Positions 5,433 through 54,915 of a DNA stretch of 64,000 nt are shown one piece after another (the stretch's first letter is position 1; the number at the start of each line of letters is the position of its first letter). The DNA is from Ligustrum vulgare (lineage: Eukaryota; Streptophyta; Magnoliopsida; Lamiales; Oleaceae): positions 44,779,026-44,843,025 of the forward strand of contig OY743176.1 of the NCBI GenBank assembly GCA_963555705.1, given 5' to 3'. Position numbers and translations under genes: made by a program. Under the pieces are notes generated by a model. It was given only the letters and a program-made list of their open reading frames with translations. It was not told the DNA's origin and made no database searches.

Positions 5433-5968
5433 GTGAATTACCATATCCATTCACATCCTGTTGGGATGCCTCAGATAGAATCTATCATATTCACCCAAGA
5501 TGATGTCATTGGAGTACACTTTCCACACAATGATGCATTAGTTATCAGGGTGGTAGTGGCCCGTAATGGGTTGTCACGAATGATGGTGGATGATGGCGCC
5601 TCAGTAAATGTGATTTACGGGGTAACTTTTGATAAGATGGGGATCAGCACCCCACTCATTCCAGTTCTGGACCCAATATATGGGTTTACTGGGGACAACA
5701 TAATCCCAGAGGATCCATAACCCTGATGACTGAAGTAGAGCAAGCGCCAACTTTTTCCAGAATTCCCATGGAATTCTTGGTTGTGGACAAAACTTCCTCC
5801 TATCATGGCTCAATTGGCAGGCCATGTCTCATTGACTTGGGAGTTGCAACTCATACAAAATACATTTGCATGAAGTTCCCCATAGAGCATGGTGTTACAA
5901 CTGTAAGGGGGAGCCAAACTGAATCGCGGGCCTGTTACACAAACGCAATCCGGAAATTTCAGGACTGA
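5433..5968 (+). pseudogene. T1 aspartic protease, frameshifted
   Basis: The frame at 5433-5720 contains the retropepsin active-site region MMVDDGASVNVIY with the D-x-G-A core, preceded by the strand VIRVVVARNGLSRM. A frameshift near 5720 moves the C-terminal part into another frame (5726-5968: FLVVDKTSSYHGSIGRPCL, a well-conserved Tat protease tail). The enzyme would cleave the polyprotein. It is broken by the shift and a stop. Confidence 0.8.
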
Positions 5969-22905: not shown

Positions 22906-25900
22906 TATAGCGACCCAGAATTTTTATGCAATAAATAATTATTTTAATATTTAGAAAATTGTGTCGCTACTATTTCATTTATTATTTTGAAATTAATGCC
23001 GCGACGGATTCGTCTAGCCAAGTCAAGAAATATCGAATTTGTTCGATTTTAAATTTAATATTCGAATTTCTAAAATTATATTATTTTAATTATTTATTCA
23101 AAGTATTATTTTCAAAAATCTTTCTAAAATCCAAAATTTTCCCACATGTCTTCTTCTTTACACCAAGACAACAATTCTTTATACAAAAACATCATCATTT
23201 TTATACAAATAAATATTACACCTAATTCTACACTATCATATTCTATAGTACCAACTCAATACATATTCTTCCCCATCACAACTCACGTTCCCCACCTTGT
23301 TTCCTTCTTAATTATTCTTTCCATCTCATTGTGTACAATCAACAAGCATCTCCACACATGAACAATTGGAACACCTCAAAGCATCATCATTATCATCACT
23401 TACACTACTCTTTCCAGCAAGGTAAAATGCTTTCTTCTCCTTTATCACCAACTCCACATACCACAATTTCGGACCCATCCATTTTCAGATTTCCACAATT
23501 CAATATATATAAACATCATCATCATCACTACCACAATTATCAGTTGCAGCCCAAACCATAACCACGAAACTTATGAATCATCAGCATCATCACCTCATTC
23601 CAACTGCAGTTCCTTTTCTGCAGCTAGACAACCAAGCATCATCAGTCCTCCTCCACCACCAGCAGCTCTAATGTCAAGCAACAATACTTCAATCCCCAAT
23701 TTTTGCAATCACCATAACAACCTGAATCATATTACTTCACTGCAGCCAACCCAACTCAAATCCCAATCTGCAACCATTTCAGCTCCACAGTCACGGCCAC
23801 CAAGCTGCCAAATTCCACTATCTGCTTCAGCCCTCCTTCATCACAATTCACACTGTCACTGCATCACCACATTTCATCATCACCAATCATCATCACAACC
23901 AAGAATTTCCCCCCAATACCAGAACCTCCACCGGAAGCAATCACCACAATCAAATCAATCCACCACCAATGAATCACTGCCGATCCAACCCGATCGAAAC
24001 AAGCTGCAAATTCCAACAAACACCACCACTGCCCTATTCTAATCAAACTTAGACATCAATTTAATCATCTTCATCATCACCAAACACCACAGCCATAGAC
24101 GACATCACCACCTCCGACCACCACTACTCAACTCTAAATCACCAAATGAACACCACCACAGCCCACAATCGCCAACCACCGGAGCCACTTCCACTGCCAA
24201 TCTCAAAATCCCCATCAATCGAACCTCAAATCAAACCAAAAACCAAGAAATAAACCAAGCCCAAGACTTACCTTCGAACGCCGTTTCTCCGACCGGAGTA
24301 TCATCGCGAACCCAGTTTCGTTTTTAACCACGGTTTTGCACCCAACCTCGCATATGAACCCCAAATCAGAACTCCCACACTTTGCCCGTCCTTCGCCTCA
24401 CCTAGCGCCGGCGAATCGCCGGTTAGAAACCGGATTTCCCTCTCTTCCTCAGCTCACGAACCTCTTTCGCCTGTCTCTCTCTAATGCCCTGATTAGCGAA
24501 GAATGAGAGAGAGAGGAGTAAAGAAAAGATAAAGTCTGATATTATATTTTAACTTTCGAAAATTTCAGTTTGGTCCCTAAAGTTTTGAAATGTTTCAAAT
24601 CAGTCCCTGAAGTTTTAATTTGTTTCAATTCAGTCCTGTTAGTTTTAAAATGATCATTTCAGCCCTTTCATTTTCAAAATATATTATTTCAGCCCTATAA
24701 TAATATTTATTTGAGCTTCGACCCAACTTTTGAAAATATTCATTTAAGTCCCTCAACTTTTAAAAGTATTCATTTTAGTCCCTCAACTTTCAAAACATCA
24801 ATTTTAGTCCTCAAATTATAATTTATCATTTTGAGTTATATATTCGATAAACTAAAGTGACTTATTGGCTAAGACGAAGCGTACGGAGAATTTAAAGAAA
24901 TTGAAGTCATTCCCGCTCAACTTTGCACTCGTCGGATTTGAGGTAGATTCGCACTTATTAATTAATTTAAATTATGATTTCATATAAATGTCATGTGACT
25001 TGTGAAAGTCAATTTTTAAGAAAAACAAGTATGTTTTTATGAAAGGTAAATATACCTTATGTTTTTATGAAAAGTAAGTATACCCTATGTTTTTACGATA
25101 ATGTTTTATATGTTTTGGATCATTGCTATGCACATAAGAATTCTTACCACCTAAGTTCGGTAGAATTCTGTGTCTCCATAAGTTTATGAGGATTTACCAC
25201 CTAAGTTCGGTAAAATTCCTGTCTTTCCATATGTTTATGAGGATTTACCACCTAAGTTCGGTAAAATTCCTGTCGCGTATGTTTATGAGGATTTCGATCC
25301 TATCTTATGTTATGATGGAAATGATCCCTATGAATTTCATGAATTATGTTTTGGTATACTTACTGTTATTATGATCTTACTGTTATTATGACTTACTACA
25401 TAAGAATTCTTACCACCTAAGTTCGGTAAAATTCTTATGTTTATGAGGATTTCGATTTTATCCTATGTTATGATGAAAACTTACTGTTATTATGATTTTA
25501 CTACATAAGAATTCTTACCACCTAAGTTCGGTAAAATTCTTATGTTTATGAGGATTTCAATCCTATCTTATGTTATGCTTTCAAAAGAAATTATGCTTGG
25601 CATAATTAAAATGTTTTATAAGTATATGGTTTTCAAAGAACTGTTTTCAAAGAGATGTTTTCAAAGAGCATATGATTTGCAAAATATGTCCCGTGCTGTA
25701 ATGCACAATATGAGTTTTATCAAGAACAGTTTTATAAAGAAGCTCTATCAATGCCCGTTTTATAAAGAGCCGGGATTTATGTGTTTAATCATCTTATAAA
25801 TTAAATTAATTTGCGATGAGTCTACTGAGTATTTCCCCCATGAAATACTCACCCTACTTTTAACAGTTTTGCAGATTTCGGAGACGGTGGCGAGCGATGA

Positions 25901-26213
25901 ATGATGGTGGCAATAATCGTTGAACGGTTGAAAGTTTGACGTTAATGATTTCCGTATTTTCCAAACAATCGAATAATTTAGAGAAGTTCATTTATTTGTG
26001 AAATTATGATATTGGCAATTTCTTTACAATATTAATGGTTCGATATACTATTTCAAATGGTTTCATAAATGTTTTCAATTTTAGCGGCCATTACAGTTTA
26101 TTTAATGTTGCCAAAAATGAATTTCAATTATTTCTTCCGCAAAAATATTATTCGAAAAAATTTAGACAGAAAATGACGTAGTGAATCGGGTATACGGAAC
26201 TCGGGGCGCTACA
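22906..26213 (+). mobile_element. Solo LTR A of the element-E family
   Basis: 3,308 bp from TATAGCGAC to GGGGCGCTACA, with duplicated flanks ccaac (22901-22905) and ctaac (26214-26218), one mismatch. It shares its first 250 bp and its whole right half with the LTRs of element E, including the AATTCTTACC...GGTAAAATTC hairpin repeats (25137-25540) and the 30-bp 'tttagtccctcaactttcaaaa' repeats (about 24560-24820). The part at about 23120-24300 is a CCA/CAT-rich tract that does not align with the other copies. No internal region remains. Confidence 0.88.
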
Positions 26214-35639: not shown

Positions 35640-36599
35640 GTTCATGGGCTGCAGTTGGCTGCAGCCCACTAAGAAATTTTGAAAATTTTGAAGATCATTT
35701 GGGTACCCAATCACTTTATCATACTTAGCCCACTAGATTTCTCATCCAACTTGAGCCCACTACTACAAATTCACAACCCAATCCATATAAAAATTTCAGA
35801 GCAAACAGCCCCCAGACCCCAGTGCGTGCGCGTAACTCGTAAGGAAGGAAAGGAGTTCAAGGGATTCAAGCTGCTGACCTGACTTGCAGTTGCTGTTCCG
35901 CTCCGCCGACACCTGCGGCCTGCCTCTGCCTGTTCGGACTGCCTTGCTGAGCCAGAGACGCTGGCACGCTGCCTGCTGCTCAGCTGCTGGCTGCCTGGCT
36001 TGCTTTGCCTTTGCTGCTGCTGCTGCTGACGCCTTCCGGTCTGCTTTCAGTCGTCTGTCGTCGGCGAGTTACCAACGGGCAACGGGTATGTGACTGGCGA
36101 CTGCAATTGCAAGGTAAGTCAAGTATAATTAGTAAAAATCTGAAAGTTGAATTTGTTGTTTGTCTTGAAATTAGTAACAGTAGTTGACTAGTTGTTTGTC
36201 TTGAAATTTGAAAGTTGAATTTGTTGATTAATTTAACTTAATTCTAAGTCTGATTTATCAATATAATTGTGTAACTTGTGTTAATTTAATTATTGATTGT
36301 TGATTGTTTTGAGTATTGAATTTATTGATTAATTCATTTTAGTTATTTAGGGCTTATTTAGAATTAGGGATTTTTGTGATAATTAATTTATTTATTATAG
36401 AAAGGATTTATCTTCTTGTGGTATATTGACATACTAGTAGTTAGTTTTTTTATTAATAAAATGGCTTAGTTTTTTTTTATTTGTTTTGGTGAATTGTGAT
36501 GTTTTATAGTTACTTTATTGATTTATTTATTTTATCACTTGATTATACTATTGTGATGAGAATTTTTGGATTGAATTTAGACAATACATATTCTTGCAG
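35640..36599 (+). other. hAT 5' region: leader exon and intron
   Basis: After the left TIR comes a stretch with GC-rich, CTG-repeat sequence (35880-36070) that ends in a splice donor CAAG|GTAAGT (36114). An AT-rich intron follows with acceptor TTCTTGCAG at 36599. The exon is probably untranslated, because the first good ATG is at 36610. Short ORFs here are not supported. Confidence 0.55.
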
Positions 36600-36609
36600 A
36601 TTAAATAGA

Positions 36610-39021
36610 ATGCTAAGAAGAAATATCTTTCATTACTTTAATAAGAAAGATGATGTTGGATCATCAAACACTCCAAATATTCCACAAGAAACTCTTATTT
36701 CAAACAAAAGATCAATGCCTGAGAATGAGTGTACTGTTGAGACATTGCAAAGTGATACTCCATATTATGAACGAGATCCTGGAAAACGCACCCCAATATC
36801 TCAGAATCCAGTTCAAAAACAAGATGAGATACGAAGAGCATATGTCGAAATGGGACCATTTCAACCTATATATGATTATCCTTTTATTCGATTTGGGACT
36901 CAAAATCGTCGATTCCAATCATCTTGGTTCAAAAAATGGCCTTGGGTTGAGTTTTCCATAGAGAAGGAAAGTGCATTCTGTTTCCCGTGTTATGTGTTTG
37001 AAAGTGCTACCACTCAACAGGATACATTTACAGTATTGGGGTTTAGGGACTGGAAGAGAGTCAACTCTAAAACTTGTGCATTTAAAAGGCATGAAGGGGA
37101 TGGGAATTCAGTACATGCGTTTGCTATGCAAAAGTTGGATAACTTGAAAAACCTACCTCAACATATTGACAGAATGCTAGAACAACGGAGTTCAAAAGAA
37201 GCTAAGGATCATCGCCTGTGCGTACAAACTGCTGTAGAAACTGTGAAGTTGCTAGCATTGCAACAATTGGCTTTTAGAGGTCATGATGAATCGGTCGACT
37301 CTTTAAATCGTGGAAATTATATTGAAATAATCAAGTTGCAAGGAAGAGCAAATAGAGAAATTGATGCAGTTGTTCTGGAAAATGCAGCTAAGAATGCCAA
37401 CTACACATCACCAAAAATTCAGAAGGAAATATTACAAATTATTGCTGATTGTGTGCGACTCAAGATCCGTGATGAAATTGGGGATGCGAAATTTTGTATT
37501 CTTGTTGATGAAGCAGTGGATGAATCCCACAAAGAACAAATGGCTATTATTTTGAGATATGTTGATGGTGGTGGATTTGTTAGAGAAAGGTTTTTTGAAG
37601 TTGTGAACGTTGTAGACACCAATGCATTGACCTTGAAAAAAGAGATTTGTAATGTATTAGACCAATACAATCTCTTATTAAAAGATCTACGCGGCCAAGG
37701 ATATGATGGTGCTAGCAACATGAGAGGTGAGTGGAATGGATTACAAGCTTTATTTCTTAAAGAATGCCCATATGCTTATTATGTTCACTGCTTTGCTCAC
37801 CGACTACAACTTGCTTTAGTTGCTGTGGCGAAAGAGGTACAAGATGTGTATCTATTTTTTCAAACTTTAAGTTCCATTGTTAACTTTGTTAGTGCTTCCT
37901 CTAAGCGTCATTCCCAATTAAAATCAATTCGATTGGATGAAATCGATGATTTGATAGCATCAGGAGAAGTAGTGACTGGTACCGGGGTTAATCAAGTTTG
38001 TACTTTGCAACGAGCTGGAGCTACTCGGTGGAGTTCACATTTTTTCTCTGTGAAGATATTGATTGAGATGTTTGGTTCAACTTGTACACTTCTTGAAGAT
38101 CTGATTGTAAGTGGATCAACCAGCAATATACGAGGAGAGGCTAAAGGGTTGCGTAATGCTATGAGAAGGTTTGATTTTACATTTATTCTGTTGTTGATGC
38201 ATGATGTTTTGGGAAAGACTGATTTATTATGTCAAGCGTTGCAAATGAAAGATCAATATGTTTTGAATGCAATACATTTAGTTTCATCTACAAAGATGCT
38301 TCTTAACAATATGCGAAATCAGCATTGGGAGGATTTTCTTTAGAGGGTGGTGGATTTTTGTGCAAGTAATGATATTGTTGTGCCTCAGTTAGATGATCGT
38401 TATTTGGAAGGTACATGACGTTCTTGTCAACAAAAAAATAATATCACAGTTGAAGAGTATTATCACTTTCAAATATTCAATGCCGTGATAGATTTTCAGT
38501 TGACAGAATTAAATTGTAGATTTACGGAGAGGACCATTGAACTTCTTCAGTTGTGCGAGGCTTTGAATCCTATCGATGGATTTAAATCTTTCTCTATAGA
38601 TGATATTTGTTCTTTAGCTGAGAGATTTTACCCTCTGGATTTTACTGTAGAGGAGAGGGATGATTTGAGGAGGCAATTAGATCATTACAAGTTTGATGTA
38701 CTTCTTCATCCGAAGTTCCAGAATGTTGATTCTCTTCCTAAGTTATGTCAGATGTTGGTTGAAACGAAGAAGTCTCGTCATTATTTTCTGATTGATAGAT
38801 TGATTCGTTTGGTGTTGACTCTTCCAGTTTCTACAGCAACAACAGAACGAGCTTTTTCAGCAATGAAACTTATCAAGACCTCCCTACGCAATAAAATGGA
38901 GAATGAATTTCTTTCAAATTCCATGGTCATCTATATTGAGAGGGAAATTGCCCTTGGAATTGATACGAATGTCATTGTTGATAAATTTTATCGTGTGGGG
39001 AGTAGGAGAATGCGTCACTAG
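36610..39021 (+). pseudogene. hAT transposase (TTF zinc finger, ZMYM1-like type), two premature stops
   Basis: One frame of 803 codons is interrupted by TAG at 38341-38343 and TGA at 38416-38418. It starts at MLRRNIFHYFNKKDD, just after the acceptor at 36599; the upstream ATG at 36496 lies in the intron. The TTF-type finger region is FQSSWFKKWPWVEFSIEKESAFCFPCYVF. The catalytic domain has FCILVDEAVDES (Asp), GQGYDGASNMRG (Asp) and HCFAHRLQLAL (the hAT CxxH). After the stops comes the hAT dimerisation region (LVLTLPVSTATTERAFSAMKLIKTSLRNKM). Both stops are explained by C-to-T changes at CAG and CGA codons. Family members normally bind the TIRs and cut and paste the element. Confidence 0.92.
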
Positions 39022-39207
39022 TAACATATCAAGATATTTTGTATTTGCACATTTATGGTGCTTTTTTTAGCAGTTACATATTGACATTTAAGCAAATTTA
39101 TTTTGTTATATTTACGAATTCGAACTCTAAATTATTCTAATTTTTGGCTTAAAAAAAAAAAAAATTTCGGGGGATCCGCCCCCGAACCCCCGGGAGGGGG
39201 GTCACCC
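39022..39207 (+). other. hAT 3' region left of element E
   Basis: A/T-rich tail after the transposase, then a GC-rich block with a perfect inverted repeat TTCGGGGG...CCCCCGAA (39166-39186). It ends in caccc, the left TSD of element E. The hAT continues at 48500. Confidence 0.6.
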
Positions 39208-42175
39208 TATAGCGACTCAGAATTTTTATACAATAAATAATTATTTTAATATTTAGAAAATTGTGTCGCTACTATTTCATTTATTATTTTGAAGTTAACG
39301 TCGCGACGGATTCGTCTAGCCAAGTCAAGAAATATCGAATTCGTTCGATTTTAAATTAAAATCCGAATTTCTAAAATTATATTATTTTAACTATTTATTC
39401 AAAGTATTATTTTCAAAATGTATTTTTCAGTCAAAAATATATCTGTTTTAAAAACGTTTCTTGATCAAAGATAGTTAAATTTTTAGTTGATTTCATCCCC
39501 CATGTTTTCTCCTCCTTTCTTTTCTCTTTACACCAAATCCATATCATATTAAACCAAATTATAATTATTCCATTCAATGATTTTATTCCCCACTAACTCC
39601 ACCACCCGTATGTATTCATTATGTTGCAAGAACATAATGATTATATTCTCCATTATCATCTATTTCACCACCACTCCATTATACATGACACCACTCCATT
39701 ATACATGATGAAAGCTGCAACCACCAGCCTGCCTTTCCAATTCGCCATCCTCAAATCCGCCATAGCCGAATCTCCAAACCAGTCTCTGAATCATCATCTT
39801 CATCACCATTCGAAATCATCAAAACCAACCACCTGCCACAGATTAAATCACCATCATCTCCATCAATTTAACCCCAATATGCAAACCATGAGCACAGATC
39901 CATCATCACCAGTTAGCCAAACCAGCCATGCCAAGCCACCACCACCACTGCAGTATTACCACAACCGGCACCATTTCAACCACCAAACCATTCTCAGTAA
40001 AAGCACCACAGCCACTGCAGTCCCCTTCCGCAGCCAGAACCGAACAACCACCAACACCGAGCTTCAAATCGCCACTGCCCATTTCACCTTCACCCAAATC
40101 AAACTCCCCAAAACCCAAAATATTACCAAGAACTCTAACCCAGTTACCTACCTCTACCGTCGACCATTTATGGTCGGATTCTCCACCGGAAGTCCCGACC
40201 TGCAGCCCCGGTTTCACCTCGAATCAGCACCCAAGCCCTAAAATCAGAAACCTTGCTTTGGCCACCACTTACCGCAACCTGCGCCGGCTACTTCGCCGGC
40301 GAATCACCGGCAGTGTCACTCGTTCGTTCCTCGCCTGATTTCACTGATGAAATCGCAGAGAGAGTGCTGAGTGAAGAGAGAGTGAGAACGAGAGAAAGAG
40401 AAGTGAGAATGGTAGAGAGAGAGAGTAAATCTGAGTATATAATTAATTTCGGAAATTTGCATTTTGGTCCCTGAAGTTTTAAAGTTATTTCAAATCAGTC
40501 CCTATGTTTTAAAAAGGTTTTATTTCAGTCCTTTCATCTTTTAAACTTATCAATTTCAGCCCTTAAGTTTTAAATGATTTTATTCAGCCTTCATTTTTAA
40601 AATATATTATTTCAACCCTATTGTTTTGAGTTTCCGACTCAACTATCAAAAGTATTCATTTTAATCCCTCAACTTTCAAAATATCTATTTTAGTCCATGA
40701 ACTTTCAAAAGTATTCATTTTAGTCCCTCAACTTTCAAAACATCAATTTTAGTCCTCAAAATTATAATTTATCATTTTGAACTATATATTCGATAGACTA
40801 AAGTGACTTATTGGCTAAGACGAAGCGTACGGAGAATTTAAAGAAATTGAAGTCATTCCCGCTCAACTTTGCACTCGTCGGATTTGAGGTAGACTCGCAC
40901 TTATTAATTGATTTAAATTATGATTTCATATAAATGTCATGTGACTTGTGAAAGTCAATTTTCAAGAAAATTAAGTATATTTTATGAAAGGTAAATATAC
41001 CTTATGTTTTTATGAAAAGTAAGTATACCCTATGTTTTTACGATAATGTTTTATATGTTTTGGATCATTGCTACGCATAAGAATTCTTACCACCTAAGTT
41101 CGGTAGAATTCTGTGTCTCCATAAGTTTATGAGGATTTACCACCTAAGTTCGGTAAAATTCCTGCCTTTCCATATGTTTATGAGGATTTACCACCTAAGT
41201 TCGGTAAAATTCCTGTCGCGTATGTTTATGAGGATTTCGATCCTATCTTATGTTATGATGGAAATGATCCCTATGAATTTCATGAATTATGTTTTGGTAT
41301 ACTTACTGTTATTATGATCTTACTGTTATTATGATCTTACTGTTATTATGATCTTACTACATAAGAATTCTTACCACCTAAGTTCGGTAAAATTCTTATG
41401 TTTATGAGGATTTCGATTTTATCCTATGTTATGATGAAAACTTACTGTTATTATGATTTTACTACATAAGAATTCTTACCACCTAAGTTCGGTAAAATTC
41501 TTATGTTTATGAGGATTTCAATCCTATCTTATGTTATGCTTTCAAAAGAAATTATGCTTGGCATAATTAAAATGTTTTTATAAGTATATGGTTTTCAAAG
41601 AACTGTTTTCAAAGAGAGGTTTTCAAAGAGCATATGATTTGCAAAATATGTCCCGTGCTGTAATGCACATTATGAGTTTTATCAAGAGCTGTTTTATAAA
41701 GAAGCTCTATCAATGCCCGTTTTATAAAGAGCCGGGATTTATGTGTTTAATCATCTTATAAATTAAATTAATTTGCGATGAGTCTACTGAGTATTTCCCC
41801 CATGAAATACTCACCCTACTTTTTAACAGTTTTGCAGATTTCGGAGACGGTGGCGAGCGATGAATGATGGTGGCAATAATCGTTGAACGGTTGAAAGTTT
41901 GACGTTAATGATTTCCGTATTTTCCAAACAATCGAATAATTTAGAGAAGTTCATTTATTTGAGAAATTATGATATTGGCAATTTCTTTACAATATTAATG
42001 GTTCGATTTACTATTTCAAATGGTTTCATAAATGTTTTCAATTTTAGCGGCCATTACAGTTTATTTAACGTTGCCAAAAATGAATTTCAATTATTTCTTC
42101 CGCAAAAATATTATTCGAAAAATTTAGACAGAAAATAACGTAGTGAATCGGGTATACGGAACTCGGGGCGCTACA
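39208..42175 (+). repeat. 5' LTR of E
   Basis: 2,968 bp. From left to right: a conserved 5' block (tatagcgactcagaattt); a CCA/CAT-rich low-complexity tract (39600-40250) with spurious His/Pro-rich ORFs; a minus-strand splice donor (GCG|GTAAGT, 40267-40272) and GA-repeat (40370-40430); about ten 30-bp 'tttagtccctcaactttcaaaa' repeats (40460-40760); five AATTCTTACC...GGTAAAATTC hairpin repeats (41085-41500); a conserved 3' block ending ggggcgctaca. Confidence 0.92.
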
Positions 42176-42960
42176 AGTTGGTATCAGAGCTAGTCTGCGT
42201 TTCTGTAGACTGGAAAAAATTTTCAAAAAGAATTTTCAAGAAATATTTTCCATTATAAAATTTTATTGATGAAGATTGCCACTGCCATCATTCGTTCCAC
42301 CAACTCCGAGGTAAAGAAGTTTATGATGTTTAAAGTTATTTCAGTATTTCGAATACTCATTTTACTAATTTATGAGAAAGAATGAAGAGTATTTCGGATA
42401 CTTATGATTTATGAGAAATAAGAATGTATTTCTTCGAAAATAATGATGTTGTTATGCTTTGTCATAACTTATATGCTTTAATGTATGAGTATGAGAAATT
42501 TTTTTTAAAGAAAACGAGTGTTGAGCATAATGGGAATAATATGATTTTATTGAGAATTAAGTAATGGATATTATGTTGAGTTAATTTATTATGCCTCTAT
42601 GTTGAAGAGAAATTTATTATGAAGTTTGACTTTGTGAATAAATTTTGGGAATATGATTTATGGCATATATTTATAAGTATGAGTAACTTTTGAGCCAATT
42701 AAGGTATGGAAGGAAGTGATATTGTGATATTGAAAAATATGATTTGAAATTGTTATGTTGAGGAATTATGAATTGAATTATGAGATATTTTTGATGATAT
42801 TGAAGTGTTGGAATCATTTTCAATATTTTTAGATCGTTGTGATCAAATGTAGAGTTATTTTTTTATTGTGAGTTATGAAGTATGCTTATGGTTTGGGATA
42901 AGTCCAAATTACAAGGGAGACTCTGTCCAGAATTTTATCATTTGGAATTAAGAGCATAAT
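42176..42960 (+). other. E primer binding site and leader
   Basis: AGTTGGTATCAGAGCTAG at 42176-42193 matches the initiator-Met tRNA primer site of plant retrotransposons. It is followed by AT-rich, non-coding leader ending in acaagggagactctgtccag (42910-42932), a phrase I associate with Del/Tekay-type gypsy elements. No ORF. The leader and 3' edge are what E shares with its presumed autonomous partner. Confidence 0.7.
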
Positions 42961-43137
42961 ATGATAAGCATCTACTAAAGGAATTAAGTTTAGACATGCA
43001 AGTTCATTTACATCAAACGAGATTTAGTAGATGATAACAGAGATTTTATTATTTTCTCATAAGGAGAACACACAAGAGTCACACTGGAAAGGAAATACAT
43101 GAAACACATGAAAGCATAAGAGAAAAACATGGAAGGA

Positions 43138-43371
43138 TCCTCAGAATGAGAGATGTGTTTCCGGAGTAGCCGTATCCTACCACCTCTGATCTTTTGAGGA
43201 AATAAAGAAACCTTCAAAGAGGTGTGTTTCGAGAGTAAGAATACTCCGTAATCTACCACCTGGAATCTTTGAAGTACACACAAGATTTAAACATTAAGGA
43301 AATCCTAGTAAATGGAGGGGTGTCTCGAGAGTGAGAATACTCCGTACTCTACCCCCACCTATTCTAAGATT
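43138..43371 (-). repeat. Three tandem hairpin repeats downstream of LOG
   Basis: Units at 43138-43200, 43212-43274 and about 43301-43371. Each has a core like gtttcgagagtaagaatactccgt followed by ctaccacct. Outer stems differ in sequence yet pair within each unit: tcctca with tgagga, cttcaaag with ctttgaag, and aatcctag with ctaagatt (one G-U on the minus strand). The middle unit pairs perfectly in three nested helices (outer stem, aggtg with cacct, gagta with tactc). The third overlaps the LOG stop. They may act in the 3' untranslated region of LOG RNA. Confidence 0.65.
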
Positions 43372-44024
43372 CAAAGAGTTAAATTTACATTAACCGGACT
43401 CCATTTTCGCTTGATTCCCCTTCCTTGCGACCAATCTATCTTAACTCCTGCTGGATCTTGTATTGAGATATATGACTGCAGCTTATCCAGTAGTTCATCA
43501 ATAGTAGGAGCAGAAATAAGAAGCCTTCTGGAAAATGGAGAGATGAATCCCTGTTCCACAGCATAATCAAGAAAGGTTAACAAACCATCAAAGAAATTGT
43601 TAACATTCAGAAGCCCAATAGGCTTAGTATGGAGATCTAGTTGAGCCCACGAGGTAATGTTAAAGATTTCTTCTAAGGTACCAAAACCTCCGGGCAGGGC
43701 TATAAAGGCATCAGAACCATATAGCATACAAGTTATGCGTTCATGGATGGATAAGGTTTGAACTTCATGCCCTCGTGTTTTGCCTGCAACATCTACCAAA
43801 GGGACAGGTATAACACCGATTACTTTTGATTTCTCTGCAAGAGCAGATTGGGAAACACAACCCATTAGACCACTGCTACCACCCCCATACACAAGAGTGA
43901 TACCTTTTTCCCCCAGTTTCTTTCCAAGATCTACAGCCGCTTCTAGATAACCGAAGCCTTTCCCTACTTTTGATCCACAAAATACACAAATAGTTTTGAT
44001 CTGTCGAAGTTTTGGTGCTTCCAT
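43371..44024 (-). CDS. LOG-type cytokinin riboside 5'-monophosphate phosphoribohydrolase, captured in element E
   Basis: 217 codons, uninterrupted. Members of this family release active cytokinin bases from cytokinin riboside monophosphates in the cytosol. The Rossmann-like fold motifs are in place: ICVFCGS (residues 12-18), LVYGGGSSGLMG (44-55), HERI (94-97) and the signature LPGGFGTLEEIF (110-121), the PGGxGTxxE motif with F where plant LOGs usually have Y. SWAQLDLHTKPIGLLN (125-140) is also LOG-typical. Length equals that of ordinary plant LOGs. The C-terminus (WSQGRGIKRKWSP...) is basic and unusual. Plant LOG genes normally have several introns and this copy has none. It runs antisense to element E, with a TATA-like TTTAAATAG 75 bp upstream. 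Activity is inferred, not shown. Confidence 0.9.
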   Translation of the reverse strand: MEAPKLRQIKTICVFCGSKVGKGFGYLEAAVDLGKKLGEKGITLVYGGGSSGLMGCVSQSALAEKSKVIGVIPVPLVDVAGKTRGHEVQTLSIHERITCMLYGSDAFIALPGGFGTLEEIFNITSWAQLDLHTKPIGLLNVNNFFDGLLTFLDYAVEQGFISPFSRRLLISAPTIDELLDKLQSYISIQDPAGVKIDWSQGRGIKRKWSPVNVNLTL

Positions 44025-44098
44025 CTTTGATAGTAAAGAAGGGAAAACTTACGAAGAAGATGTGATTTTGGGATGCCTGAACTATGAAATATGTTTGG

Positions 44099-44107
44099 CT
44101 ATTTAAA
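44099..44107 (-). promoter_or_regulatory. TATA-like core upstream of LOG
   Basis: Minus-strand TTTAAATAG in ggctttaaatagcc, 75 bp before the LOG ATG. The same nine bases occur upstream of the second ORF (44974-44982). A 20-plus-base A-run (T-run on the coding strand) lies directly upstream at 44113-44137. Confidence 0.5.
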
Positions 44108-44137
44108 GCCGGAAAAAAAAAAAAAAAAAAAAAAAAA

Positions 44138-44389
44138 TTTACTGTTTTTGATTGATTCTGAAAAAGTAAAGATTTACTTTTGACAAAATCAGCCCACTTT
44201 TGAATATTTTTATCGTATCGAGGCTGTCACCTTTCGGCGATTTAATATTTATTTCCAGCTTTATCAAACCTCGAGAAAGGAAAATATATTTATTTCCAGC
44301 TTTATCAAACCTCGAGAAAAGAAATATATATTTTATTTCCAAAACGCGTGAAAGAAAGCAGCAAAATATTTTAAAAAAAAAGATTTACC
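44138..44389 (-). other. Spacer between the two captured ORFs, with a 40-bp tandem duplication
   Basis: Contains two near-identical copies of a unit reading atatttatttccagctttatcaaacctcgagaaa (about 44246-44282 and 44286-44323), plus a partial third. On the minus strand this would be 3' untranslated sequence of the Cys4 gene or promoter-distal sequence of LOG. No ORF is supported. Confidence 0.55.
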
Positions 44390-44941
44390 TTATATCATTG
44401 CTGAACTGCCAGAAGCCTCATTTTGTAAAACAGACTGGCAAACAGGATCTTTCGATATTATATTTTGGAGACTATAACGATTTTTGTCCTCGTTAAACTG
44501 AGCGTATAAGGAGAGAAGTTCACGTTGTACATAACCACTTGGGTGCGTCTCAAGAGTCAGTCGAATATCATCCAAAGACTCCTTACTCAGTCCACCCTTT
44601 ATGAATTCGATTTTATCATCCCGATTAGTAGAAGAATATCCTACTGATTTGCAACGTGTATTACAGTTCCAACGAGCACATTTGTAGCAACCACCCAGTC
44701 TTTTTGCTCTTCGTTTCTTTGCGAACGTGCTTTTGCCTAAACCAGGCATATGTTTTGGAAATGTTGATGGTAATTCACCAGATAGTCGAACCTTTGCTTC
44801 TATCAACCAGCGAACATCTTCTGGAATATCATGAGCCATTAGCAACCTCAATCTTTCGAGCCTTATTTTATAGATCTTTCTCAGATCATTCATAGGAAGA
44901 CTGGAATAATACTTGCGAATGTTAGAAAGAATGATATCCAT
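44390..44941 (-). CDS. 183-aa basic Cys4 protein, virus CRP-like, captured in element E
   Basis: Start chosen at ATG 44941 (aacaATGG context); five upstream codons in frame begin with TTG only. The protein is basic and helical at the N-terminus (residues 18-50). It then has KKRRAKR (75-81) directly before C85-x2-C88-x4-C93-x3-C97, followed by FIKGG (113-117) and an acidic, helix-prone C-terminus. A basic stretch leading into a C-x2-C finger and a trailing FI-x-x-G resembles the cysteine-rich nucleic-acid-binding proteins of carlaviruses and relatives (Carla_C4 family), which suppress silencing or act on transcription. This match is by pattern only. Alternatives are a host zinc-finger protein or a family restricted to these elements. 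A TATA-like TTTAAATAG lies 33 bp upstream. No intron. Confidence 0.65.
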   Translation of the reverse strand: MDIILSNIRKYYSSLPMNDLRKIYKIRLERLRLLMAHDIPEDVRWLIEAKVRLSGELPSTFPKHMPGLGKSTFAKKRRAKRLGGCYKCARWNCNTRCKSVGYSSTNRDDKIEFIKGGLSKESLDDIRLTLETHPSGYVQRELLSLYAQFNEDKNRYSLQNIISKDPVCQSVLQNEASGSSAMI

Positions 44942-44973
44942 TGTTTGATGATTCAACCTCTTCCCAGCATGAA

Positions 44974-44982
44974 CTATTTAAA
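44974..44982 (-). promoter_or_regulatory. TATA-like core upstream of the Cys4 ORF
   Basis: Minus-strand TTTAAATAG in gcttttaaatagttc, 33 bp from the ATG at 44941. The leader would be very short if this is the TATA box. It is identical in core to the one before LOG. Confidence 0.45.
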
Positions 44983-45526
44983 AGCGCAAAGGATCTGAGT
45001 GAATCCGCGTGATGTTGTGACCAGCAAGAAAGCGCAGGATTATTTTAATGAAAAGAGGAGACAAGAAGTAATGCGCTGTTAAATTTTATCGATAAAGGAG
45101 ATTTGATTGGAGATTTGGAATATTTTCTTGGATTATGGGTACTGATATTTTGTTTTAATAATGATAATCTTGGTATAGTGTGATGATACGTGAAAAGTAA
45201 AATGAGTACCGTATTGAATCAGAATTCATACGTATATACAAGTGAAAGAAATACTTTGCAGGAAATGTGGTGACATTTAAGTGTAGAATCTTAGTTTTGG
45301 GAGATATTTATTTACTGAATTTTGAGTTACAAATGTTGGAAAGATAAGTTGATGATTTTATGTTGATATGTTTGGGTATATTACGTAGAGAAAATATTCA
45401 GGTAATTCTTTGATTATTTTGAGAATATTCGATAATAAGAAGAAGAGATTTTGATTAAGTATTCAGAAATTATAAGATCAAGTAAGTTTAATTTCGAGGA
45501 CGAAATTATTTTTAAGGAGGTAAGAT
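44983..45526 (+). other. E 3' interior and polypurine tract
   Basis: AT-rich, non-coding. The end, tttcgaggacgaaattatttttaaggagg (45493-45521), is the typical close of chromovirus-like pol plus polypurine tract (AAGGAGGTAAGA), directly before the 3' LTR. So the element kept its replication signals while losing its genes. Confidence 0.65.
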
Positions 45527-48494
45527 TATAGCGACTCAGAATTTTTATACAATAAATAATTATTTTAATATTTAGAAAATTGTGTCGCTACTATTTCATT
45601 TATTATTTTGAAGTTAACGTCGCGACGGATTCGTCTAGCCAAGTCAAGAAATATCGAATTCGTTCGATTTTAAATTAAAATCCGAATTTCTAAAATTATA
45701 TTATTTTAACTATTTATTCAAAGTATTATTTTCAAAATGTATTTTTCAGTCAAAAATATATCTGTTTTAAAAACGTTTCTTGATCAAAGATAGTTAAATT
45801 TTTAGTTGATTTCATCCCCCATGTTTTCTCCTCCTTTCTTTTCTCTTTACACCAAATCCATATCATATTAAACCAAATTATAATTATTCCATTCAATGAT
45901 TTTATTCCCCACTAACTCCACCACCCGTATGTATTCATTATGTTGCAAGAACATAATGATTATATTCTCCATTATCATCTATTTCACCACCACTCCATTA
46001 TACATGACACCACTCCATTATACATGATGAAAGCTGCAACCACCAGCCTGCCTTTCCAATTCGCCATCCTCAAATCCGCCATAGCCGAATCTCCAAACCA
46101 GTCTCTGAATCATCATCTTCATCACCATTCGAAATCATCAAAACCAACCACCTGCCACAGATTAAATCACCATCATCTCCATCAATTTAACCCCAATATG
46201 CAAACCATGAGCACAGATCCATCATCACCAGTTAGCCAAACCAGCCATGCCAAGCCACCACCACCACTGCAGTATTACCACAACCGGCACCATTTCAACC
46301 ACCAAACCATTCTCAGTAAAAGCACCACAGCCACTGCAGTCCCCTTCCGCAGCCAGAACCGAACAACCACCAACACCGAGCTTCAAATCGCCACTGCCCA
46401 TTTCACCTTCACCCAAATCAAACTCCCCAAAACCCAAAATATTACCAAGAACTCTAACCCAGTTACCTACCTCTACCGTCGACCATTTATGGTCGGATTC
46501 TCCACCGGAAGTCCCGACCTGCAGCCCCGGTTTCACCTCGAATCAGCACCCAAGCCCTAAAATCAGAAACCTTGCTTTGGCCACCACTTACCGCAACCTG
46601 CGCCGGCTACTTCGCCGGCGAATCACCGGCAGTGTCACTCGTTCGTTCCTCGCCTGATTTCACTGATGAAATCGCAGAGAGAGTGCTGAGTGAAGAGAGA
46701 GTGAGAACGAGAGAAAGAGAAGTGAGAATGGTAGAGAGAGAGAGTAAATCTGAGTATATAATTAATTTCGGAAATTTGCATTTTGGTCCCTGAAGTTTTA
46801 AAGTTATTTCAAATCAGTCCCTATGTTTTAAAAAGGTTTTATTTCAGTCCTTTCATCTTTTAAACTTATCAATTTCAGCCCTTAAGTTTTAAATGATTTT
46901 ATTCAGCCTTCATTTTTAAAATATATTATTTCAACCCTATTGTTTTGAGTTTCCGACTCAACTATCAAAAGTATTCATTTTAATCCCTCAACTTTCAAAA
47001 TATCTATTTTAGTCCATGAACTTTCAAAAGTATTCATTTTAGTCCCTCAACTTTCAAAACATCAATTTTAGTCCTCAAAATTATAATTTATCATTTTGAA
47101 CTATATATTCGATAGACTAAAGTGACTTATTGGCTAAGACGAAGCGTACGGAGAATTTAAAGAAATTGAAGTCATTCCCGCTCAACTTTGCACTCGTCGG
47201 ATTTGAGGTAGACTCGCACTTATTAATTGATTTAAATTATGATTTCATATAAATGTCATGTGACTTGTGAAAGTCAATTTTCAAGAAAATTAAGTATATT
47301 TTATGAAAGGTAAATATACCTTATGTTTTTATGAAAAGTAAGTATACCCTATGTTTTTACGATAATGTTTTATATGTTTTGGATCATTGCTACGCATAAG
47401 AATTCTTACCACCTAAGTTCGGTAGAATTCTGTGTCTCCATAAGTTTATGAGGATTTACCACCTAAGTTCGGTAAAATTCCTGCCTTTCCATATGTTTAT
47501 GAGGATTTACCACCTAAGTTCGGTAAAATTCCTGTCGCGTATGTTTATGAGGATTTCGATCCTATCTTATGTTATGATGGAAATGATCCCTATGAATTTC
47601 ATGAATTATGTTTTGGTATACTTACTGTTATTATGATCTTACTGTTATTATGATCTTACTGTTATTATGATCTTACTACATAAGAATTCTTACCACCTAA
47701 GTTCGGTAAAATTCTTATGTTTATGAGGATTTCGATTTTATCCTATGTTATGATGAAAACTTACTGTTATTATGATTTTACTACATAAGAATTCTTACCA
47801 CCTAAGTTCGGTAAAATTCTTATGTTTATGAGGATTTCAATCCTATCTTATGTTATGCTTTCAAAAGAAATTATGCTTGGCATAATTAAAATGTTTTTAT
47901 AAGTATATGGTTTTCAAAGAACTGTTTTCAAAGAGAGGTTTTCAAAGAGCATATGATTTGCAAAATATGTCCCGTGCTGTAATGCACATTATGAGTTTTA
48001 TCAAGAGCTGTTTTATAAAGAAGCTCTATCAATGCCCGTTTTATAAAGAGCCGGGATTTATGTGTTTAATCATCTTATAAATTAAATTAATTTGCGATGA
48101 GTCTACTGAGTATTTCCCCCATGAAATACTCACCCTACTTTTTAACAGTTTTGCAGATTTCGGAGACGGTGGCGAGCGATGAATGATGGTGGCAATAATC
48201 GTTGAACGGTTGAAAGTTTGACGTTAATGATTTCCGTATTTTCCAAACAATCGAATAATTTAGAGAAGTTCATTTATTTGAGAAATTATGATATTGGCAA
48301 TTTCTTTACAATATTAATGGTTCGATTTACTATTTCAAATGGTTTCATAAATGTTTTCAATTTTAGCGGCCATTACAGTTTATTTAACGTTGCCAAAAAT
48401 GAATTTCAATTATTTCTTCCGCAAAAATATTATTCGAAAAATTTAGACAGAAAATAACGTAGTGAATCGGGTATACGGAACTCGGGGCGCTACA
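45527..48494 (+). repeat. 3' LTR of E
   Basis: 2,968 bp, same sequence as 39208-42175 at an offset of 6,319 in every part compared. The ORFs in it (206, 136, 103, 79, 73 and 62 aa) have the same translations as in the 5' copy and are not genes. It is followed by the TSD caccc. Confidence 0.92.
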
Positions 48495-48640
48495 CACCCC
48501 CCATTTTTTTCTCTAGCATACTATGTTTGTATATCCTAGTTCCGCCCCTGACTAGTAGGATCATAAAGGAAGAGAAAAGAAGGAAAAAGGACCAAAATGC
48601 GCTTAAAACTGAAGATTGGGGGACCTTGGGTGAAATTTAA

Positions 48641-51766: not shown

Positions 51767-54700
51767 TATAGCGACTCAGAATTTTTATGCAATAAATAAT
51801 TATTTTAATATTTAGAAAATTGTGTCGCTACTATTTCATTTATTATTTTGAAGTTAACGCCGCGACGAATTCGTCTAGCCAAGTCAAGAAATATCGAATT
51901 TGTTCGATTTTAAATTTAATGTCCGAATTTCTAAAAATTATATTATTTTAAAGTATTATTTTCAAAATCATTTTTTTTTTTTAAATTCCAAATTTAGTAA
52001 AAATATCTCAATTTTCCTGATTTAATTATTTTAAGTCCAAAATACGTAATTCAATTTTATATCAAAATTTATTTATTCTCAGATTTATTTTCAGTCCAAA
52101 ATATATCAGTTTTAAATACAATTCTTAATCAAAGATTCCTCCAATTCTGATGTATTCCACTATACTTTATTATAATTCCTAAATCAATACAATAATCCCA
52201 GCATCTAACCTATTGAAGCACCATCATTACCATTCAACCACTCGAGACCACAAACCAGCTGCCAAGATTCCCTCACTTCACCTTTACAGCTCCATTCTCG
52301 TCTCAGCCATTCTTTCCAGCAAATGTTTTCTTTCTCCATGTTCAACCATAATCACCACACCTCCATCACTATATCATCACCTGCAGAACCTTCATCACAC
52401 AACTTGAATGATAGCCTGCAACCAATATTTCCAACACACAACCAGCAGCAACCACAAGCCAACTGCTAATCCCAAATTCACACACTGATTCACAGAAAAA
52501 CATTTTTCGTCCAAGCCACAAAACTTTGATCTTCAATTTGCAGCCAACCACTACCATTTTCGAATCAACCTAATCATCAACAATCTCAACTATTTTCATG
52601 AAGCCACACAATCACAGTCCAACCACAATACCAAAGCAGTCACCATAACTACCAACCTTCAATCCGTTTTCCCAACTCAATGCCAATCAAAACATCAATC
52701 TGAAACCAATCTACACCTCTGCTACCTAATCACCTCCATTCACAATCGGCCAAACCACCAAATAAATTCAAGCAACTCAAATTCAAACCCCTGCACCCAA
52801 ATCCGAAAACTCGCACACCATAATCCCCGATCCCAACTCGATATAAACCCAAAACCAAGAAATAAACCAAGCCCCAAGACTTACCTTCGAACGCCGTTTC
52901 TTCAATCTATGTTTCATTTGCGAACCCAGACTTGTTTCACCTTCGTTTTCTCACCAAATCAACCCAAAGAGTTTCTGTTCTCGCAATCCTATACTCACCT
53001 CCGTCGCTGCCATGTGATGGCCGTACTATCACTGGCAGCGCACCGTCAGTCTGGACCGGCGAGAGGCCGTTCACCGTCGCCAGCCTTCGTCTCCTTCTCT
53101 CGCCCTTTTTCTCTGTCTTCGTTCTCTCTCTCTCTCTAAGCGTCCTGAGATAAGAAAATTAAAGAAAGAAAAGGTTTTTAAATTATTTGTGACTTTTCAG
53201 AATTTGCAAATCAGTCCTCAAGTTTGAAAAGATTTTATTTCAGTCCTTTCAGCTTTTAAACTTATCAATTTCAGCCCTTAAGTTTTAAATGAGTTTTAAT
53301 CAGTCCCTGATGTTTTAAATTGTTTTAATTCAGTCCCTACTGTTTTAAACTCATCCATTTCAGCCTCAAAGCTTTAAAATGATTTACTTCAGCCCTTTAA
53401 CTTTAAACTCTTTTATTTCAGTACCTGCTGATTTACTTTTAAGCCCAAGTTTTAAAAGTATTCATTTTAGTCCCTTAACTTTCAAAATATCTATTTTAGT
53501 CCCTGAACTTTCAAAAGTATTCATTTTAGTCCCTCAACTTTCAAAACATCAATTTTAGTCTTCAAATTATAATTTATCATTTTGAACTATATATTCGATA
53601 GACTAAAGTGACTTATTGGCTAAGACGAAGCGTACGGAGAATTTAAAGAAATTGAAGTCATTCCCGCTCAACTTTGCACTCGTCGGATTTGAGGTAGACT
53701 CGCACTTATTAATTGATTTAAATTATGATTTCATATAAATGTCATGTGACTTGTGAAAGTCAATTTTCAAGAAAATTAAGTATGTTTTATGAAAAGTAAG
53801 TATACCCTATGTTTTTACGATAATGTTTTATATGTTTTGGATCATTGCTACGCATAAGAATTCTTACCACCTAAGTTCGGTAGAATTCTGTGTCTCCATA
53901 AGTTTATGAGGATTTACCACCTAAGTTCGGTAAAATTCCTGTCTTTCCATATGTTTATGAGGATTTACCACCTAAGTTCGGTAAAATTCCTGTCGCGTAT
54001 GTTTATGAGGATTTCGATCCTATCTTATGTTATGATGGAAATGATCCCTATGAATTTCATGAATTATGTTTTGGTATACTTACTGTTATTATGATCTTAC
54101 TACATAAGAATTCTTACCACCTAAGTTCGGTAAAATTCTTATATTTATGAGGATTTCGATCTTATCCTATGTTATGATGAAAACTTACTGTTATTATGAT
54201 TTTACTGCATAAGAATTCTTGCCACCTAAGTTCGGTAAAGTTCTTGTGTCTATTTATGTTTATGAGGATTTCAATCATATCTTATGTTATGCTTTCAAAA
54301 GAAATTATGCTTGGCATAATTAAAATATTTTTATAAGTATATGGTTTTCAAAGAGCTGTTTTCAAAGAGCCTATGATTTGCAAAATATGTCCCGTGCTGT
54401 AATGCACAATATGAGTTTTATCAAGAGCTGTTTTATAAAGAAGCTCTATCAATGCCCGTTTTATAAAGAGCCGGGATTTATGTGTTTAATCATCTTATAA
54501 ATTAAATTAATTTGCGATGAGTCTACTGAGTATTTCCCCCATGAAATACTCACCCTACTTTTTAACAGTTTTGCAGATTTCGGAGACGGTGGCGAGCGAT
54601 GAATGATGGTGGCAATAATCGTTGAACGGTTGAAAGTTTGACGTTAATGATTTCCGTATTTTCCAAACAATCGAATAATTTAGAGAAGTTCATTTATTTG

Positions 54701-54915
54701 AGAAATTATGATATTGGCAATTTCTTTACAATATTAATGGTTCGATTTACTATTTCAAATGGTTTCATAAATGTTTTCAATTTTAGCGGCCATTACAGTT
54801 TATTTAATGTTGCCAAAAAATGAATTTCAATTATTTCTTCCGCAAAAATATTATTCGAAAAATTTAGACAGAAAATGACGTAGTGAATCGGGTATACGGA
54901 ACTCGGGGCGCTACA
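51767..54915 (+). mobile_element. Solo LTR D of the element-E family, inside G4 gag
   Basis: 3,149 bp, TATAGCGAC...GGGGCGCTACA, with a perfect TSD cttag at 51762-51766 and 54916-54920. The right half is nearly identical to the LTRs of E, including the hairpin repeats (53856-54245) and 30-bp repeats (about 53195-53570). The CCA-rich tract (about 52200-52860) differs in sequence from A and E. A minus-strand donor AAG|GTAAGT (52879-52884) is shared with A. Confidence 0.92.

What the first reader, a model, noticed from the sequence alone, without database searches (positions are those of the whole stretch)
42176..45526. LTR retrotransposon whose interior is a captured two-gene cassette (LOG plus Cys4 protein) instead of gag-pol
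Seen: equal-length LTRs, TSD caccc, primer binding site and polypurine tract enclose 3.35 kb with no retroviral domains but two intact ORFs on the opposite strand. Known: LARDs usually have non-coding interiors, and gene capture by LTR elements (for example Bs1 in maize) is rare. Inference: a recently mobile LARD is carrying a cytokinin-activating gene and a partner gene around the genome.
Basis: partly seen in the sequence, partly recalled or inferred. Interest (0 to 1): 0.92.

Follow-up and report, generated by a model that had tools for sequence, protein, structure and literature searches.

The report
Jumping gene carrying virus-like gene pair
A plant's 'jumping gene' that cannot move by itself carries, in place of movement genes, one gene resembling an RNA virus's silencing-blocking protein and one resembling a hormone-activating enzyme, and thousands of copies of this gene pair, many of them still readable, lie scattered through the genome in at least two unrelated kinds of element.

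Summary
Identical 2,968-bp LTRs (39208-42175, 45527-48494; TSD CACCC) enclose a 3.35-kb interior without detectable gag-pol but with two intact antisense ORFs. It belongs to a large, young family: 40 of 40 scored genome hits span the interior at 95-100% identity; 20 fetched copies have 99.4-100% identical LTR pairs and both ORFs intact. The 'Cys4 ORF' matches Pfam Viral_NABP and Carla_C4, cysteine-rich silencing suppressors of carla- and related viruses. The LOG is no recent host retrocopy: intronless, 49% identical to Arabidopsis LOG3, outside the plant LOG clade. The same cassette lies, again antisense, in an unrelated (Bianca-like) LTR family. Motifs occur at 5,952 NABP and 5,926 LOG places; 83 of 100 listed LOG places are paired. 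dN/dS between families is 0.06 (LOG) and 0.16 (NABP). I read it as a mobile accessory module of non-autonomous retrotransposons; its function (less silencing, more cytokinin) is inferred. LOG domains in LTR elements were in print; a viral-type partner was not found in nine answered paper searches.

The parts
39203..39207 (.). Target-site duplication CACCC, left copy
39208..42175 (+). 5' LTR, 2,968 bp, TATAGCGA...GCTACA
   Evidence: 100.000% identical to the 3' LTR
42179..42190 (+). Primer binding site TGGTATCAGAGC (initiator tRNA-Met type; motif recalled)
   Evidence: read
42176..43037 (+). Left non-coding part of the interior, shared with the cassette-less sibling L116 (41353-43007 at 95%; weaker resemblance, judged by eye, to about 43037)
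43038..45046 (-). NABP-LOG cassette (about 2.0 kb, antisense to the element); absent from L116, present and antisense in the unrelated element L029
   Evidence: ends, approximate; homology to L029
43165..43356 (-). Repeats downstream of LOG (GGTGGTAGA.TACGGAGTATTCT.ACTCTCGA.ACAC type), present in both element families
43371..44024 (-). Intronless LOG-like gene, 217 aa, PF03641, PGGxGTxxE motif kept
   Evidence: intact in 20 of 20 copies
44099..44108 (-). TATA-like CTTTAAATAG 75-84 nt upstream of the LOG ATG; kept in L029, changed in L030
44112..44138 (+). Poly-A/T tract upstream of LOG, very variable in length between copies
44245..44324 (-). Two 39-bp tandem units upstream of LOG; gap patterns of 42-43 and 83-84 columns suggest that their number varies between copies
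44390..44941 (-). Gene for a viral-type nucleic-acid-binding (cysteine-rich) protein, 183 aa, with KKRRAKR basic stretch and CX2CX4CX3C
   Evidence: Pfam PF05515 3.4e-7 and PF01623 5.1e-6, both above cut-off; intact in 20 of 20 copies
44974..44983 (-). TATA-like TTTTAAATAG 33-42 nt upstream of the NABP ATG; TTTAAATAG kept in L029 and L030
45047..45526 (+). Right non-coding part of the interior, shared with L116, ending in the polypurine tract (AAGGAGG 45514-45520)
45527..48494 (+). 3' LTR
48495..48499 (.). Target-site duplication CACCC, right copy

Best explanation
The element is a young non-autonomous LTR retrotransposon (LARD-like, ends of Tekay/Del chromovirus type) whose transposition proteins must come in trans from an autonomous relative. 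Its payload is a compact antisense two-gene module with its own TATA-like boxes: a virus-type nucleic-acid-binding/cysteine-rich protein (NABP) and an intronless LOG-type cytokinin-activating enzyme. Shown by sequence: structure, copy number, recent mobility of 20 copies, sharing of the module between two unrelated LTR families, and purifying selection on both proteins. Inferred: the NABP acts like its viral relatives (suppressing RNA silencing and/or acting in the nucleus as a transcription factor), the LOG releases active cytokinin, and together they make cells less able to silence the element and more prone to divide, so that more copies reach the germ line. It would thus work like the accessory genes of viruses, carried by a retrotransposon.
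For: LTR/TSD anatomy. Genome-wide: NABP finger motif of the window type 1859+1984=3,843 places, of the L029 type 1044+1065=2,109, LOG motif 2904+3022=5,926, backward-pattern controls 0 in these three searches. 83 of the first 100 listed LOG places (all on C1) have one of the two NABP motifs on the same strand 779-952 nt upstream. Pfam Viral_NABP/Carla_C4 above cut-off in the window protein (3.4e-7; 5.1e-6) and in L029 (3.9e-9; 2.4e-5). dN/dS between the two families 0.064 (LOG, 94.5% aa identity, dS 0.48) and 0.157 (NABP, 80%, dS 0.80); within 20 copies pN/pS 0.11 and 0.31. Distinct indel patterns: 0 in 1,206 coding versus 17 in 1,780 flanking non-coding positions, Fisher p = 2e-4 (the intergenic stretch with 29 patterns, mostly its poly-A tract, was left out of the test). 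TATA-like boxes and 3' repeats shared between the families. Viral CRPs act as silencing suppressors, and chrysanthemum virus B p12 also as a transcription factor inducing hyperplasia (PMC12172455, passages).
Against: No expression, protein or phenotype data. NABP membership rests on two Pfam models; its structure model was useless (mean pLDDT 42), and scans of IMG/VR with NABP and LOG found no relative. No autonomous partner was identified (only one candidate, L116, was read). In a non-autonomous element, proteins acting in trans should be only weakly selected in cis, so selection might act on a master element. Older copies decay (L030: LOG frame broken, NABP frame shortened). At least one sibling with the same ends (L116) does without the cassette. 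The within-family tests rest on few variable sites (20 in LOG, 19 in NABP); in NABP non-synonymous variants (10) outnumber synonymous ones (9), though not per site.
Confidence: 0.4

Rival explanations
1. Passive hitch-hiking: a LARD picked up a cassette by chance and a recent burst made many copies; the ORFs are intact only because the copies are young.
For: Very young LTR pairs (23 mismatches in 60,642 aligned LTR positions over 20 copies); L030 is decayed; a cassette-less sibling with the same ends exists.
Against: Between the two LTR families, whose cassettes differ at dS 0.48-0.80, both proteins are conserved at dN/dS 0.06 and 0.16 (one sequence per family), which a recent burst cannot give; two unrelated LTR families carry the same gene order and TATA-like boxes.
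Confidence: 0.2
2. The antisense genes matter mainly as antisense transcripts: they make double-stranded RNA with the element's genomic RNA and so tune its copy number, the proteins being secondary.
For: The cassette is antisense in both families; such a role has been proposed for antisense ORFs of plant LTR elements (PMC7264820, passages).
Against: Protein-level constraint is strong; an RNA role would not keep reading frames or amino acids; the cassette is only about 2.0 kb of the 9.3-kb element.
Confidence: 0.12
3. The 183-aa protein is a plant or transposon zinc-finger protein that only resembles viral NABPs; the pair is an old retroelement accessory module of cellular origin.
For: Only parts of the protein match the Pfam models (about 105 and 33 residues in the window protein); no viral relative was found by direct scan; LOG itself groups with plant LOGs (96/91) on a long branch; LOG-family domains in LTR elements of Citrus and poplar were reported.
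Against: Two viral Pfam families hit above curated cut-offs in two copies that are 80% identical; a nuclear localisation signal and a zinc finger are named for viral CRPs too (that the basic stretch stands before the cysteines there is recalled).
Confidence: 0.2

Closest known systems
LTR retrotransposons with a YgdH/LOG domain (Citrus sinensis, C. clementina, Populus trichocarpa; PMC9289625 section 12, citing Steinbauerova et al. 2011; recalled abstract of the latter: Athila-like elements with similarity to LOGL4)
   Same: A LOG-family ORF inside an LTR retrotransposon
   Different: Those were found in consensuses selected by reverse transcriptase, so in pol-bearing elements; here the carriers show no gag-pol, have a viral-type partner gene, thousands of copies, and span two LTR families. 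Whether the Citrus elements also have an NABP was not testable here
Antisense additional ORFs (aORFs) of Retand, Grande, RIRE2 (PMC11963269, PMC7264820, passages)
   Same: Antisense extra genes in the interior of plant LTR elements, kept over long times, suspected to regulate the element
   Different: Those lie next to gag-pol and mostly encode a TRP28 domain; the terms LOGL, lysine decarboxylase and silencing suppressor do not occur in PMC11963269, nor LOG and cytokinin as whole words in PMC7264820
Orchid Ty3/gypsy elements with an AlkB/2-ODD RNA demethylase (PMC9289625, abstract and section 12)
   Same: LTR element with an accessory enzyme proposed to counter host surveillance (AlkB domains also occur in flexiviruses: recalled)
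   Different: 25-kb elements with gag-pol, one enzyme, biochemically tested
Large retrotransposon derivatives (LARDs; description recalled)
   Same: Long LTRs, PBS, PPT, no gag-pol, moved in trans
   Different: LARD interiors are as a rule non-coding; this one has two conserved genes. L116 is the ordinary form
Cysteine-rich proteins / NABPs of carla-, viti-, allexi- and mandariviruses (PMC12172455, passages)
   Same: Pfam families PF05515 and PF01623; basic stretch and cysteines
   Different: In mandariviruses the CRP is the 3'-terminal ORF of an RNA virus genome; here a DNA gene with its own TATA-like box, paired with LOG

Membership tests
LTR retrotransposon, non-autonomous (LARD-like) | Two LTRs, PBS, PPT, 5-bp TSD | tested here: met
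   9 of 11 copies in which the outer 5' end was seen show the TSD
LTR retrotransposon, non-autonomous (LARD-like) | No gag-pol in the interior | tested here: met
   all 8 open frames of 75 aa or more: only LOG and NABP match Pfam; shorter remnants not excluded
LTR retrotransposon, non-autonomous (LARD-like) | Non-coding interior (classical LARD) | tested here: not met
   two genes under purifying selection; the sibling L116 has a non-coding interior
Ty3/gypsy Tekay (Del) chromovirus as source of the backbone | RT/INT/chromodomain phylogeny | not testable with these tools
   no pol in the element; assignment rests on recalled PBS and PPT motifs only
Ty1/copia Bianca as the lineage of L029 | PBS complementary to half tRNA-Ile | tested here: inconclusive
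   the - strand shows CGTTATCAGCACGAG next to the LTR; tRNA letters recalled; the Bianca rule from PMC6317226 (passage); no pol among 9 further frames
LOG cytokinin phosphoribohydrolase family | PF03641 match and PGGxGTxxE motif with the conserved Arg (residue roles recalled) | tested here: met
LOG cytokinin phosphoribohydrolase family | Activity on iPRMP | not testable with these tools
   bench assay needed
Retrocopy of a present host LOG gene | Close similarity to one of the host's LOG genes | tested here: not met
   8 host places by motif (backward control 3), 5 fetched, all 5 with LOG exons; exon pieces 34-59% identical to the element's LOG (the 34% piece runs over an intron); element LOG outside the plant LOG clade. 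Three places were not read
Viral NABP/CRP family | Pfam PF05515/PF01623 above curated cut-off | tested here: met
   window and L029 both; L030 piece PF05515 only just (23.3 against 23), PF01623 below (18.1 against 20.9)
Viral NABP/CRP family | Phylogenetic place inside viral CRPs; silencing suppression | not testable with these tools
   no viral CRP sequences at hand; structure model too weak
Endogenous viral element | Adjacent viral genes such as CP or replicase | tested here: not met
   no further Pfam match above cut-off in 6 frames of the window interior, 9 of L029 and 9 of L030 (one sub-threshold 15-residue hit in L030)

The most novel reading that the evidence does not exclude
A mobile, virus-like accessory module (silencing suppressor or transcription factor plus cytokinin-activating enzyme) has been adopted by parasitic, non-autonomous LTR retrotransposons of two superfamilies and amplified to about 6,000 gene pairs, so that a retrotransposon manipulates host silencing and the hormone state of its cells to reach the germ line.
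Probability: 0.3. Interest if true: 0.92.

Novelty: new variant of a known kind. Interest (0 to 1): 0.74.

Why it matters
Plant LTR elements are usually seen as targets of silencing with few means of their own against it. A conserved pair of a viral-type suppressor-like gene and a hormone-activating gene, spread by elements that lack their own replication genes, would show how accessory genes pass between RNA viruses and retrotransposons and would make testable whether retrotransposons steer host development. In practice, thousands of such ORFs could also inflate LOG gene counts in genome annotations.

Tried and rejected
Unique capture or assembly chimera: rejected. Recent host LOG retrocopy: rejected. 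LOG-only second family: first suspected, rejected once L029 and L030 were read and the second NABP motif counted. A giant palindrome in L029 was my error: the file held two records; redone per record. Viral relatives in IMG/VR: none by NABP or LOG. NABP structure: mean pLDDT 42, so no fold search was made. Papers naming PF01623 in plants: both use the number for another domain, HAGH_C. Autonomous partner: not found, but little was searched: of two junction places without the NABP motif one (L116) was read and is another non-coding LARD. The PBS-junction count and a genome search with the whole L029 element did not complete. Steinbauerova 2011 and Lukhovitskaya 2013 are not held; what I say of them beyond the citing passages is recalled.
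Full report
WHAT IS THERE. The window lies in a 1.385-Gb genome of 51 contigs, at G000:C9:44779026-44843025; it is a plant by its LOG genes and elements, and the species was not identified. Element E has LTRs 39208-42175 and 45527-48494, 2,968 bp, identical without gaps, TSD CACCC, PBS TGGTATCAGAGC at 42179 and polypurine AAGGAGG at 45514. E begins 190 bp after two ORFs with DUF4371 and hAT dimerisation domains. Between the LTRs are two genes on the - strand: LOG 43371-44024 and NABP 44390-44941. The 6 other open frames of 75 aa or more have no Pfam match. In 1,000 shuffles of the interior the longest ORF averaged 74 aa; 2 reached 183 and none 217.

WHAT THE GENES ARE. The LOG matches PF03641 (1.3e-33) and the solved chain 2a33, At2g37210 (LOG3 by recall; 1.6e-57), with the PGGxGTxxE motif kept. 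It is intronless. A host LOG motif gave 8 places (the backward control gave 3); I fetched 5, and all 5 hold LOG exons, up to seven pieces each, 50-100% identical to LOG3. The element's LOG is 49% identical to LOG3 and 43% to LOG8 (1ydh), which are 71% identical to each other. In a tree of 84 rows (2 element, 5 plant, 77 of 80 bacterial loci) the element LOGs join the plant LOGs (96/91) on a branch of 1.25, outside the LOG3/LOG8 split; long-branch effects cannot be excluded, the bacterial rows were picked by similarity and no algal or moss LOG was at hand. The 183-aa protein matches Viral_NABP (3.4e-7) and Carla_C4 (5.1e-6), both above cut-off; its relative in L029 gives 3.9e-9 and 2.4e-5, the decayed L030 piece 6.9e-5 and a sub-threshold 0.0027. 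It has a basic stretch (KKRRAKR) before its cysteines. A structure model from two sequences was useless.

COPIES. 40 of 40 scored DNA hits (5,518 candidates) cover the interior at 95-100%. 150 of 150 scored NABP protein hits (8,795 candidates) are 100% identical and open; both lists are best-first, hence biased to young and intact copies. In the 20, LTR pairs are 99.4-100% identical over the parts aligned (one LTR of L022 ends early and 9 copies have their outer ends outside the stretch), 23 mismatches in 60,642 positions, about 15,000 years at a recalled rate of 1.3e-8. LOG and NABP are intact in 20 of 20. Interiors are 97.4-99.6% identical to E's, while the 5' end of the LTR is replaced or diverged in many copies, which suggests recombination between LTR variants. 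Tandem LTR-interior arrays also occur.

A MODULE SHARED BY TWO FAMILIES. L029 and L030 belong to another LTR family: in L029 the LTRs are 208 bp, 99.5% identical, TGTTATAA...TTATAACA. Read on the - strand L029 has CGTTATCAGCACGAG next to one LTR and AAGGGGGAG next to the other; half tRNA-Ile priming is given as the mark of Ty1/copia Bianca (PMC6317226, passage; tRNA letters recalled). Nine further frames in each of L029 and L030 gave no Pfam match above cut-off. Apart from one 38-bp match, only the cassette of L029 aligns with E: LOG region 87%, NABP region 82% nucleotide identity, in the same order, antisense to the element, with TATA-like TTTAAATAG before both ATGs (in L030 the LOG box is changed) and the same repeats after LOG. 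Conversely L116 has E's LTR end and both interior flanks, but about 0.85-0.9 kb of DNA without long ORF instead of the cassette. This puts the cassette at about 43038-45046.

NUMBERS. NABP finger of the window type 3,843 places, of the L029 type 2,109, LOG motif 5,926, controls 0. These are exact motif counts, not counts of intact genes. Of the first 100 listed LOG places, all on C1, 52 have the first and 31 the second NABP motif on the same strand 779-952 nt upstream; 17 have neither exact motif, among them L030, whose NABP has a changed finger. Seen from the NABP side, 52 of 56 window-type and 31 of 44 L029-type places in that span are paired. E's 3' junction pattern occurs 1,086 times (control 0); of 18 in the first 45.5 Mb of C1, 16 have the window-type NABP motif 0.65-1.05 kb inside, antisense. 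The other 84 of the 100 NABP places listed in that span have no such junction; the one inspected (L117) is the same family with a changed LTR start.

SELECTION. Between E's copy L009 and L029: LOG dS 0.48, dN 0.031; NABP dS 0.80, dN 0.126. Within 20 copies: LOG 15 synonymous and 5 non-synonymous variants, NABP 9 and 10, pN/pS 0.11 and 0.31. No indel in 1,206 coding positions against 17 distinct gap patterns in 1,780 flanking non-coding ones (some in homopolymers, so not all independent; the intergenic stretch with 29 was left out). Nucleotide diversity is 0.0056 (LOG) and 0.0037 (NABP) against 0.0085 and 0.0172 in the outer flanks and 0.0065 between the genes, though one 314-bp stretch next to LOG is lowest at 0.0018. 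So the proteins, not only the DNA, have been kept; where selection acts in a non-autonomous element is open.

HOW IT MAY WORK. Viral CRPs suppress silencing, and one (CVB p12) is also a transcription factor inducing hyperplasia (PMC12172455, passages). LOG enzymes release active cytokinin (established knowledge). Both point to less silencing and more cell division; this is inference.

KNOWN OR NEW. Nine paper searches were answered; three failed. LOG-family (YgdH) domains in LTR elements of Citrus and poplar are in print (PMC9289625, abstract and section 12 read), as are antisense extra ORFs (passages) and a betaflexivirus replicase piece in cucumber DNA (PMC3136472, passages). A viral-type NABP in an LTR element, or its pairing with LOG, was not found in these searches, which cover only openly licensed papers. 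Hence: new variant of a known kind.

Noticed in passing
window 51767-54915: Solo LTR of the same family with perfect TSD CTTAG.
   Followed up: partly
window 22906-26213: Another LTR of the family without interior, flanked by CCAAC/CTAAC (imperfect TSD).
   Followed up: no
window 39621-40241 and 45940-46560: A 206-aa ATG-ORF lies inside each LTR, His/Ser/Pro-rich; not tested for coding.
   Followed up: no
G000:C14:29531754-29569309: Six interiors spaced exactly 6,855 bp: a tandem LTR-interior array; smaller arrays on C10 and C12.
   Followed up: no
G000:C1:55460204-55466751: Five NABP motifs of the L029 type spaced 1,629 bp: a tandem array with a unit shorter than the cassette.
   Followed up: no
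L116:3051-3932: About 0.9 kb without long ORF in place of the cassette; among the loci compared only a 52-bp match to L117 and simple-repeat-like scraps; insert or ancestral interior unknown.
   Followed up: partly
L009-L028, 5' end of the LTRs: The 5' part of the LTR (U3) differs or is replaced between copies while interior and LTR 3' end stay nearly identical, as if promoters were exchanged by recombination.
   Followed up: partly
G000:C1:963451 and 965968: A LOG motif and a NABP motif 2.5 kb apart on opposite strands, unlike the usual cassette.
   Followed up: no
window 36493-39018: ORFs with DUF4371 and hAT dimerisation domains directly upstream of the element.
   Followed up: no
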